A stretch of 64,000 bases of DNA from Thermoproteus uzoniensis 768-20 (GTDB lineage: Archaea; Thermoproteota; Thermoprotei; Thermoproteales; Thermoproteaceae), in assembly GCF_000193375.1 (NCBI RefSeq), contig NC_015315.1, positions 1,496,622 to 1,560,621 on the forward strand, in the 5' to 3' direction. The first letter of the stretch is position 1; every line of letters begins with the position of its first letter. Of the stretch, positions 42,473 through 43,182 are shown one piece after another. The position numbers and the translations under genes were made by a program. Under the pieces are notes generated by a model. It was not told where the DNA came from, searched no databases, and saw nothing but the letters and a program-made list of their open reading frames with translations.

Positions 42473-42910
42473 TTAAATTTCTACCGTCTTTAGCCCCTCC
42501 CTCTCGGCGGCTCTGGCCAGCTCCGCGTCGGCGGTGTAGAAGGCGCCGCATTTGACGTATAGGCAACTGGCTATCTGGAGGGCGTCGGCGAAGTAGAGGT
42601 GGTGCCTCAGCGCCAGCGTTATTGATCTGCGCAACACCACGCCGCCGAGAGGGACAAGCGCGAAGTTGCCCAGCCGCGTAAGCGTCTTGAGTTCTCTAAG
42701 CATTAACGACACGGCGACTTCTGCGTTGCGCGTCAACTCGCCGCGCCTGGCCTTTTTGTCTAGCGCCGACGCCGCCTCGCCTATGTTGTAGATGGATGTG
42801 GACAGCACGGCCGAGCCTCTGTACGCCGACTCGAAGAGCTTGTCCACCTCGGCGCTCCCCGGCTCCTCGACGTAGCGCTTCACCAACGCGCTTGTGTCTA
42901 GGTATATCAC
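42473..42910 (-). CDS. vapC: VapC-type PIN-domain ribonuclease toxin
   Basis: The 145-residue protein has the four acidic PIN residues: Asp5 (YLDTSALVK), Glu45 (NIGEAAS), Asp109 (YFADALQIA) and Asp128 (YTADAEL), which bind Mg2+ for RNA cleavage. It overlaps the antitoxin gene by ATGA. The pair sits inside the rpl3-rpl4 interval on the opposite strand. Confidence 0.88.
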
Positions 42911-43182
42911 AGGCGCCCGGCCCGCTCCCTCCGCATCTCAGCCACGAGGGCGGCCGTCGGAGGCCCGAGGGCTCTGGGCCTCCGCGCCGCGATTTCTCCC
43001 GGAGTGGTTAGGGGCTCGGCGCAGTCCAGCCCCAGCTCTCCGCACAAGACGTCCGCAAGCCCCTCGCCGTCTATAGACTCCAGGAAATCCTCGACGAGTC
43101 TGCTCAGCGATCCCAGCCCCCGCGACCGGGCCTTGGCTCTCTCGGCCAAATCCTCCCGTACAGACAAAGTCAACTTCTTCAC
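42907..43182 (-). CDS. vapB: VapB-type antitoxin
   Basis: This 91-residue protein begins [22 protein letters not shown], a beta strand plus helix typical of RHH antitoxins, and ends in a charged tail expected to wrap the toxin. GTG 43182 is 23 bp from the TATA box cttatatatt (43201-43210); longer in-frame forms starting at 43233 would cover the promoter. A perfect palindrome lies between TATA box and start, suggesting self-repression. Confidence 0.8.

What the first reader, a model, noticed from the sequence alone, without database searches (positions are those of the whole stretch)
42473..43182. VapBC toxin-antitoxin pair placed between rpl3 and rpl4
In archaea rpl3, rpl4 and rpl23 normally form one operon. 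Here an antisense-oriented VapBC pair and about 0.8 kb of non-coding DNA split them, and rpl4-rpl23 has gained its own TATA boxes. Such an insertion would need new promoter control for a core ribosomal operon, and the toxin, an RNase, would be physically linked to it.
Basis: partly seen in the sequence, partly recalled or inferred. Interest (0 to 1): 0.55.

Follow-up and report, generated by a model that had tools for sequence, protein, structure and literature searches.

The report
Toxin-antitoxin cassette splitting rpl3 from rpl4
In this heat-loving archaeon a horizontally acquired toxin-antitoxin gene pair, lying beside transposon debris, has landed in the tiny gap between two ribosomal protein genes; it was probably tolerated because the downstream gene already had its own promoter, so it is an unusual but understandable insertion.

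Summary
In detail: a complete VapBC pair (vapC 42473-42910, vapB 42907-43182, both minus) lies between rpl3 and rpl4-rpl23. None of the 41 other Thermoproteales genomes holding both genes has it there: 34 have gaps of 16-141 bp, two 0.58 kb, and five have the genes apart. Outside the order, 22 of 22 have gaps of 4-98 bp.

rpl4 did not gain a promoter: a TATA-like box begins 27 bp before its GTG here and in 4 of 4 other Thermoproteus examined; 9 of 11 Pyrobaculum-genus genomes have one.

Part of the "non-coding" DNA is transposon debris: 43460-43628 is the 3' module of a TnpB-type element (E 1.2e-20); minus strand 42352-42401 is probably a tnpB 3' relic (E 2.4e-8, biased row choice). VapBC is 88-95% identical in protein to three Pyrobaculum-genus genomes whose rpl3 is 73-74% identical, so it was transferred horizontally. 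Nothing found links the toxin functionally to the ribosomal genes. New member of a known kind at an unusual address.

The parts
41141..42154 (+). rpl3 (uL3); its stop codon TAG 42152-42154 lies at the left junction of the insert
   Evidence: junction compared with relatives
42145..42151 (.). left copy of a 7-bp direct repeat CCAAATT (possible target-site duplication)
   Evidence: longest common word of the two junctions; reached by 34 of 3000 mononucleotide shuffles (+-15 bp) and 171 of 3000 (+-25 bp)
42152..42401 (-). probable degraded 3' region of a TnpB-type element; only 42352-42401 is recognisable, as the 3' end of tnpB
   Evidence: nhmmer E 2.4e-8 (8 rows, chosen by similarity to this region). 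Against: no Pfam hit for the ORF, protein profile E 0.17, right-end profile E 0.79
42446..43389 (-). block homologous to a vapBC region of G029 and G036 (Pyrobaculum genus), 85% nt
42473..42910 (-). vapC, PIN-domain toxin; acidic residues D5, E45, D109, D128 intact
42907..43182 (-). vapB antitoxin (DUF6364), GTG start
43189..43200 (.). perfect palindrome ACGTATATACGT between the TATA-like sequence of vapB (minus strand, about 43201-43210) and its start; candidate VapB operator
   Evidence: sequence; identical in G029, G036, G031
43460..43628 (+). 3'-end (right-end / omegaRNA-region) module of a TnpB-type IS; dispersed family with copies in the Pyrobaculum genus and two more in this genome
   Evidence: E 1.2e-20; the ORF upstream of one copy (L072) has PF07282
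43654..43660 (.). right copy of the direct repeat CCAAATT
43662..43669 (+). TATA-like box TTTAAATA of rpl4, beginning at -27 from GTG 43689; shared with relatives
43689..44543 (+). rpl4 (uL4); likely leaderless start GTG 43689 (in-frame ATG 43683 also possible)
44540..44794 (+). rpl23 (uL23)

Best explanation
About 1.5 kb of foreign DNA carrying an intact VapBC pair, with transposon debris, inserted in the spacer of a few tens of bases between rpl3 and rpl4 in the lineage of this Thermoproteus species. Shown: the insert is not at this place in any relative examined; VapBC is far closer to copies in the Pyrobaculum genus than the ribosomal genes are; the 3' module of a TnpB-type element lies between vapB and rpl4; rpl3 has its stop codon at the left junction; the TATA-like box of rpl4 stands at its ancestral spacing. 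Probable: a second, outward-facing tnpB relic on the rpl3 side. Inferred: the pair came from a Pyrobaculum-like donor together with, or beside, TnpB-element DNA; it was tolerated because rpl4-rpl23 already had its own promoter; it is kept as an ordinary addictive, self-repressed VapBC (VapB binds the palindrome, VapC cuts RNA when VapB is lost), with no specific role in ribosomal gene control.
For: Gene order: 34 of 42 order genomes holding both genes have gaps of 16-141 bp between the matched parts; 22 of 22 outside the order have 4-98 bp; neighbours are otherwise collinear, DUF2175-rpl3-rpl4-rpl23-csl4, in L003, L005, L006. Transfer: vapC 93-95%, vapB 88-92% amino-acid identity to G029, G031, G036; pS 0.22-0.30 for vapBC against 0.56-0.61 for rpl3 in the same genome pairs, and 0.49 and 0.66 for rpl3 to same-genus G040 and G041; no vapB match in the 5 other Thermoproteus genomes (G039 and G040 are only 76% and 73% complete). 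Selection: dN/dS 0.07-0.15 (vapC) and 0.15-0.23 (vapB) against those three. Transposon debris. Old promoter. Conserved acidic residues.
Against: The left relic is short: 50 bp is significant, its profile rows were picked by similarity to it, the protein-level search gives E 0.17, third in rank in the window behind a zinc ribbon of csl4, and the right-end profile gives E 0.79 there. The 7-bp repeat could be chance. No right-end module was found at E 0.1 within 1.5 kb of vapBC in G029, G031 or G036, and the tnpB profile gave only short matches at E 0.034 and 0.035 in two of them, so the association may be secondary. Pairwise dN/dS averages both lineages and does not prove selection after the insertion. 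The TATA box rests on spacing and conservation; no transcript data were seen and no shuffled control was run. No solved structure matched VapC at E 0.001; two weak, unrelated-looking ones for VapB at E 1.
Confidence: 0.82

Rival explanations
1. Old, ordinary arrangement of the clade: the VapBC has always sat between rpl3 and rpl4.
For: None found.
Against: None of the 41 other order genomes holding both genes has it there; vapBC divergence to the Pyrobaculum genus is far below that of rpl3.
Confidence: 0.02
2. Composite mobile unit: two outward-facing TnpB-element 3' ends moved VapBC as one unit into the junction and made the 7-bp duplication.
For: Relics on both sides in opposite orientation; 7-bp direct repeat at the junctions.
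Against: Left relic weak; no right-end module beside vapBC in G029, G031, G036; only one partial PF07282 match in this genome; IS200/IS605 elements are not known to make target duplications (recalled).
Confidence: 0.15
3. Regulatory coupling: VapB binding or VapC action at this site tunes rpl3 or rpl4 expression and the position is selected.
For: Physical linkage; the operator-like palindrome lies about 0.5 kb upstream of rpl4; vapBC transcripts would run towards the rpl3 3' end (coordinates).
Against: The palindrome and vapB promoter region are equally conserved in G029, G031 and G036, where the pair sits elsewhere; rpl4 keeps a TATA-like box shared with relatives.
Confidence: 0.05

Closest known systems
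VapBC type II toxin-antitoxin systems (PIN toxin with a small DNA-binding antitoxin)
   Same: Two small overlapping genes, antitoxin first; PIN domain with conserved acidic residues; operator-like palindrome at the promoter; patchy distribution and transfer, as described for such systems in PMC2701414 (passages seen)
   Different: The location, inside a conserved ribosomal gene pair
VapBC4 of Sulfolobus acidocaldarius (PMC11633383; abstract and outline seen)
   Same: A VapBC of a related thermophilic archaeon; there the toxin is an RNase acting on mRNA and rRNA and is tied to heat stress
   Different: No sequence comparison was made here, and its gene neighbourhood was not read
TnpB-type (IS200/IS605-like) elements and their 3' omegaRNA regions
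   Same: An ORF with PF07282 followed by a G+C-rich 3' module with a common end, dispersed in the Pyrobaculum genus
   Different: In the window only 3'-end pieces remain, without a tnpB gene; whether any RNA is made is unknown

Membership tests
VapBC type II toxin-antitoxin | toxin with PIN domain | tested here: met
   PF01850 E 1.2e-12, over cut-off
VapBC type II toxin-antitoxin | conserved acidic active-site residues | tested here: met
   D5 and E45 in 21 of 21, D109 and D128 in 20 of 21 sequences (query plus 20 chosen relatives); their catalytic role is recalled
VapBC type II toxin-antitoxin | small DNA-binding antitoxin encoded just upstream, overlapping | tested here: met
   91-aa ORF overlapping vapC by 4 bp, PF19891 (DUF6364) just over cut-off; the pair is conserved in G029, G031, G036. 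That DUF6364 is RHH-like and binds DNA is recalled
VapBC type II toxin-antitoxin | toxicity relieved by antitoxin; RNase activity | not testable with these tools
   needs an expression assay
TnpB-type IS 3'-end module (right flank) | sequence match to the dispersed module up to its common 3' end | tested here: met
   43460-43628, E 1.2e-20 in the 64-kb window with a profile of 12 of the 16 aligned copies, window copy left out
TnpB-type IS 3'-end module (left flank) | sequence match to tnpB 3' end and following module | tested here: inconclusive
   tnpB 3' relic E 2.4e-8 with rows chosen by similarity; right-end profile E 0.79; protein profile E 0.17
Functional omegaRNA | expressed guide RNA with conserved fold | tested here: inconclusive
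   window copy folds 1.4 s.d. below mononucleotide shuffles; the 12 other copies range from +0.2 to -5.2 s.d.; no Rfam match at E 1; expression not testable

The most novel reading that the evidence does not exclude
Outward-facing TnpB-element 3' ends framing VapBC form, or formed, a composite mobile cassette that delivered a toxin-antitoxin pair into an essential ribosomal operon junction, where addiction plus essential neighbours makes the insertion effectively irreversible.
Probability: 0.1. Interest if true: 0.6.

Novelty: new member of a known kind. Interest (0 to 1): 0.36.

Why it matters
It is a natural experiment on how much a core ribosomal gene pair depends on co-transcription: the spacer accepted 1.5 kb, probably because the downstream gene already had a promoter inside that spacer. 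It also shows a toxin-antitoxin pair that moved between archaeal genera with transposon debris beside it.

Tried and rejected
Old-clade arrangement: rejected by the gene-order surveys. Newly gained rpl4 promoter: rejected. Rfam RNA in 42100-43750: no match at E 1. Plasmid or phage carrier: 6 plasmid records, all Thermus, 41-45% identical; no phage match, both at E 1e-5. Terminal inverted repeats at the insert ends: only a 6-bp match seen by eye, not tested. A complete right end in the left flank: not supported beyond the tnpB relic. Solved structures for VapC and VapB: none useful. Of the 16 aligned right-end copies, four (L117, L120, L131, L132) were left out of the profile.

The lengths of G033 (1,993,257) and G032 (2,436,033) match Pyrobaculum sp. 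WP30 and P. oguniense TE7, so genus g2 is called Pyrobaculum here; G042's 1.84 Mb agrees with T. tenax (abstract listing). The window's own identity, Thermoproteus uzoniensis 768-20, is recalled from its genome size.

Papers: PMC3189178, passages and section 18; PMC2701414, passages; PMC11633383, abstract and outline; PMC12558985, passages, no mention of Thermoproteus or Pyrobaculum in its main text; all others only as search listings. The listings show no paper that by title or abstract start describes a toxin-antitoxin pair between rpl3 and rpl4; that is no proof that none exists.

Full report
The window lies in G000, a single 1,936,063-base contig; I recall this size as that of Thermoproteus uzoniensis 768-20. 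NCBIfam gave no match for either member of the pair at E 0.05.

Is it old? I searched rpl3 and rpl4 in the 45 genomes held of the order. Both were found in 42; three (G014, G022, G039, all incomplete) gave neither. Gaps between the matched parts: 34 genomes 16-141 bp, two of genus g3 (G043, G044) 580 bp, five of genus g6 (G007-G011) on different contigs, and G000 1531 bp. In g6 each of the two genes is flanked by other long ORFs, which I did not identify, so they lie apart and are not merely cut by contig ends. In G044 two small ORFs on the rpl strand fill the gap; one is TusA (PF01206, E 6.5e-13), the other has no Pfam match at E 0.1; the gap of G043 has a very similar sequence. In a search of the class limited to genomes at least 85% complete, 23 genomes lay outside the order: 22 had both genes, with gaps of 4-98 bp, and G048 lacked an rpl4 match. 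The insertion is therefore seen in this species only, at a junction that was also broken in two other genera of the order.

Does it need a new promoter? The evidence says no. TTTAAATA (43662-43669) begins 27 bp before GTG 43689. A TATA-like hexamer begins at exactly -27 of the corresponding GTG in 4 of 4 other Thermoproteus examined. In genus g2 (Pyrobaculum) 9 of 11 have one, near -24 to -30 depending on which in-frame start is taken; G031 has TATATAAA, which my pattern missed, and G037 has none. By the same pattern 0 of 4 genomes of g4 and g8, 0 of 2 of g3 and 1 of 5 of g6 have one. No shuffled control was run for this pattern. In several Pyrobaculum the rpl3 stop codon TAA lies inside the box (by eye). 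The Thermoproteus tenax genome paper says that short ribosomal gene clusters seem typical of this family (PMC3189178 section 18). If the right copy of the direct repeat marks the end of the insert, the insert ends 1-8 bp upstream of the box.

What is the insert? The vapBC block matches G029 and G036 from 42446 to 43389 (85% nt) and G031 from 42470 to 43241 (90%), ending near the start of a PaREP1 gene that follows vapC there (PF05942, shown for G036's locus L065). vapC is 93-95% and vapB 88-92% identical in protein, whereas rpl3 in the same pairs is 73-74%. The share of synonymous differences is 0.22-0.30 for vapBC and 0.56-0.61 for rpl3 in the same pairs; for rpl3 within Thermoproteus it is 0.49 to G040 and 0.66 to G041. 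vapB has no match in the 5 other Thermoproteus genomes, two of which are incomplete; vapC has only distant ones in two of them, at most 50% identical. This is horizontal transfer, most simply from a Pyrobaculum-like donor. dN/dS against those three genomes is 0.07-0.23 and the acidic residues are intact, so the pair has been under purifying selection since the lineages parted; because such values average both lineages, selection after the insertion is not proved. A palindrome ACGTATATACGT between a TATA-like sequence and the start of vapB is the same in all four genomes.

The flanks. 43460-43628 belongs to a dispersed family whose copies share a 3' end; a profile of 12 of 16 aligned copies, without the window's, finds it at E 1.2e-20. 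Upstream of the copy in L072 is a 402-aa ORF with the TnpB-type domain PF07282 (E 6.3e-8). On the other side, minus strand 42401-42352 matches the 3' end of tnpB at E 2.4e-8, but the eight rows of that profile were chosen because they resembled it, the protein profile gave only E 0.17, behind a zinc ribbon of csl4 at 0.00088, the ORF has no Pfam match and the right-end profile gives E 0.79 there. If both relics are accepted, VapBC sits between two outward-facing TnpB-element 3' ends. No right-end module was found within 1.5 kb of vapBC in G029, G031 or G036 at E 0.1; the tnpB profile gave short matches at E 0.034 and 0.035 in the first and third, about 1.2 kb beyond the matched block. This genome has a single, partial PF07282 match, so the pieces here look like fossils.

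The junctions. CCAAATT occurs at 42145-42151 and 43654-43660, which would make the insert 1509 bp. Shuffles reach a 7-bp match in 34 of 3000 (+-15 bp) or 171 of 3000 (+-25 bp) cases, so a target duplication is suggested, not shown. Removing one copy together with the insert would leave rpl3 ending at the TAA of the rpl4 box, as in several Pyrobaculum, which fits (reasoned, not computed).

How it works. Most likely this is an ordinary self-repressed VapBC, one of 13 PIN-domain matches in this genome, retained by addiction and tolerated because rpl4-rpl23 was already independently transcribed. Transcription, RNase activity, addiction and operator binding are all inferred. I found no evidence that VapBC regulates the ribosomal genes.

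Changes made on re-checking: the left relic is now called probable throughout; the value for G040, the weak matches, the missing control for and the dropped rows were added.

Noticed in passing
L154-L163 (genus g6, G007-G011): rpl3 and rpl4-rpl23 lie at separate places in five of five genomes of this genus, each flanked by other long ORFs.
   Followed up: partly
L011 5497-5978 minus, and the similar interval in L012: In genus g3 a TusA-family gene and a second small ORF without a Pfam match lie between rpl3 and rpl4 on the same strand; apparently an independent insertion at the same junction.
   Followed up: partly
L131 (G032:C1:1870952-1871036): A copy of the TnpB 3'-end module abuts a vapC fragment of about 27 codons beside a vapB, so such an element has also hit a vapBC in P. 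oguniense.
   Followed up: no
L116 (G000:C1:1350474-1350567) and L128 (G029:C1:1036152-1036241): The 3'-end module has similar right-hand flanking sequence in both genomes, as if at the same site in two genera (by eye).
   Followed up: no
L114, L133, L135 (G030): Copies in G030 keep only the last part of tnpB plus the 3' module, with similarity beginning at nearly the same tnpB position, like a non-autonomous derivative family (by eye).
   Followed up: no
L007, L008, L010, L017, L018, L020 (Pyrobaculum genus): csl4, which follows rpl23 on the same strand in Thermoproteus, is on the opposite strand downstream of rpl23 in these genomes.
   Followed up: no
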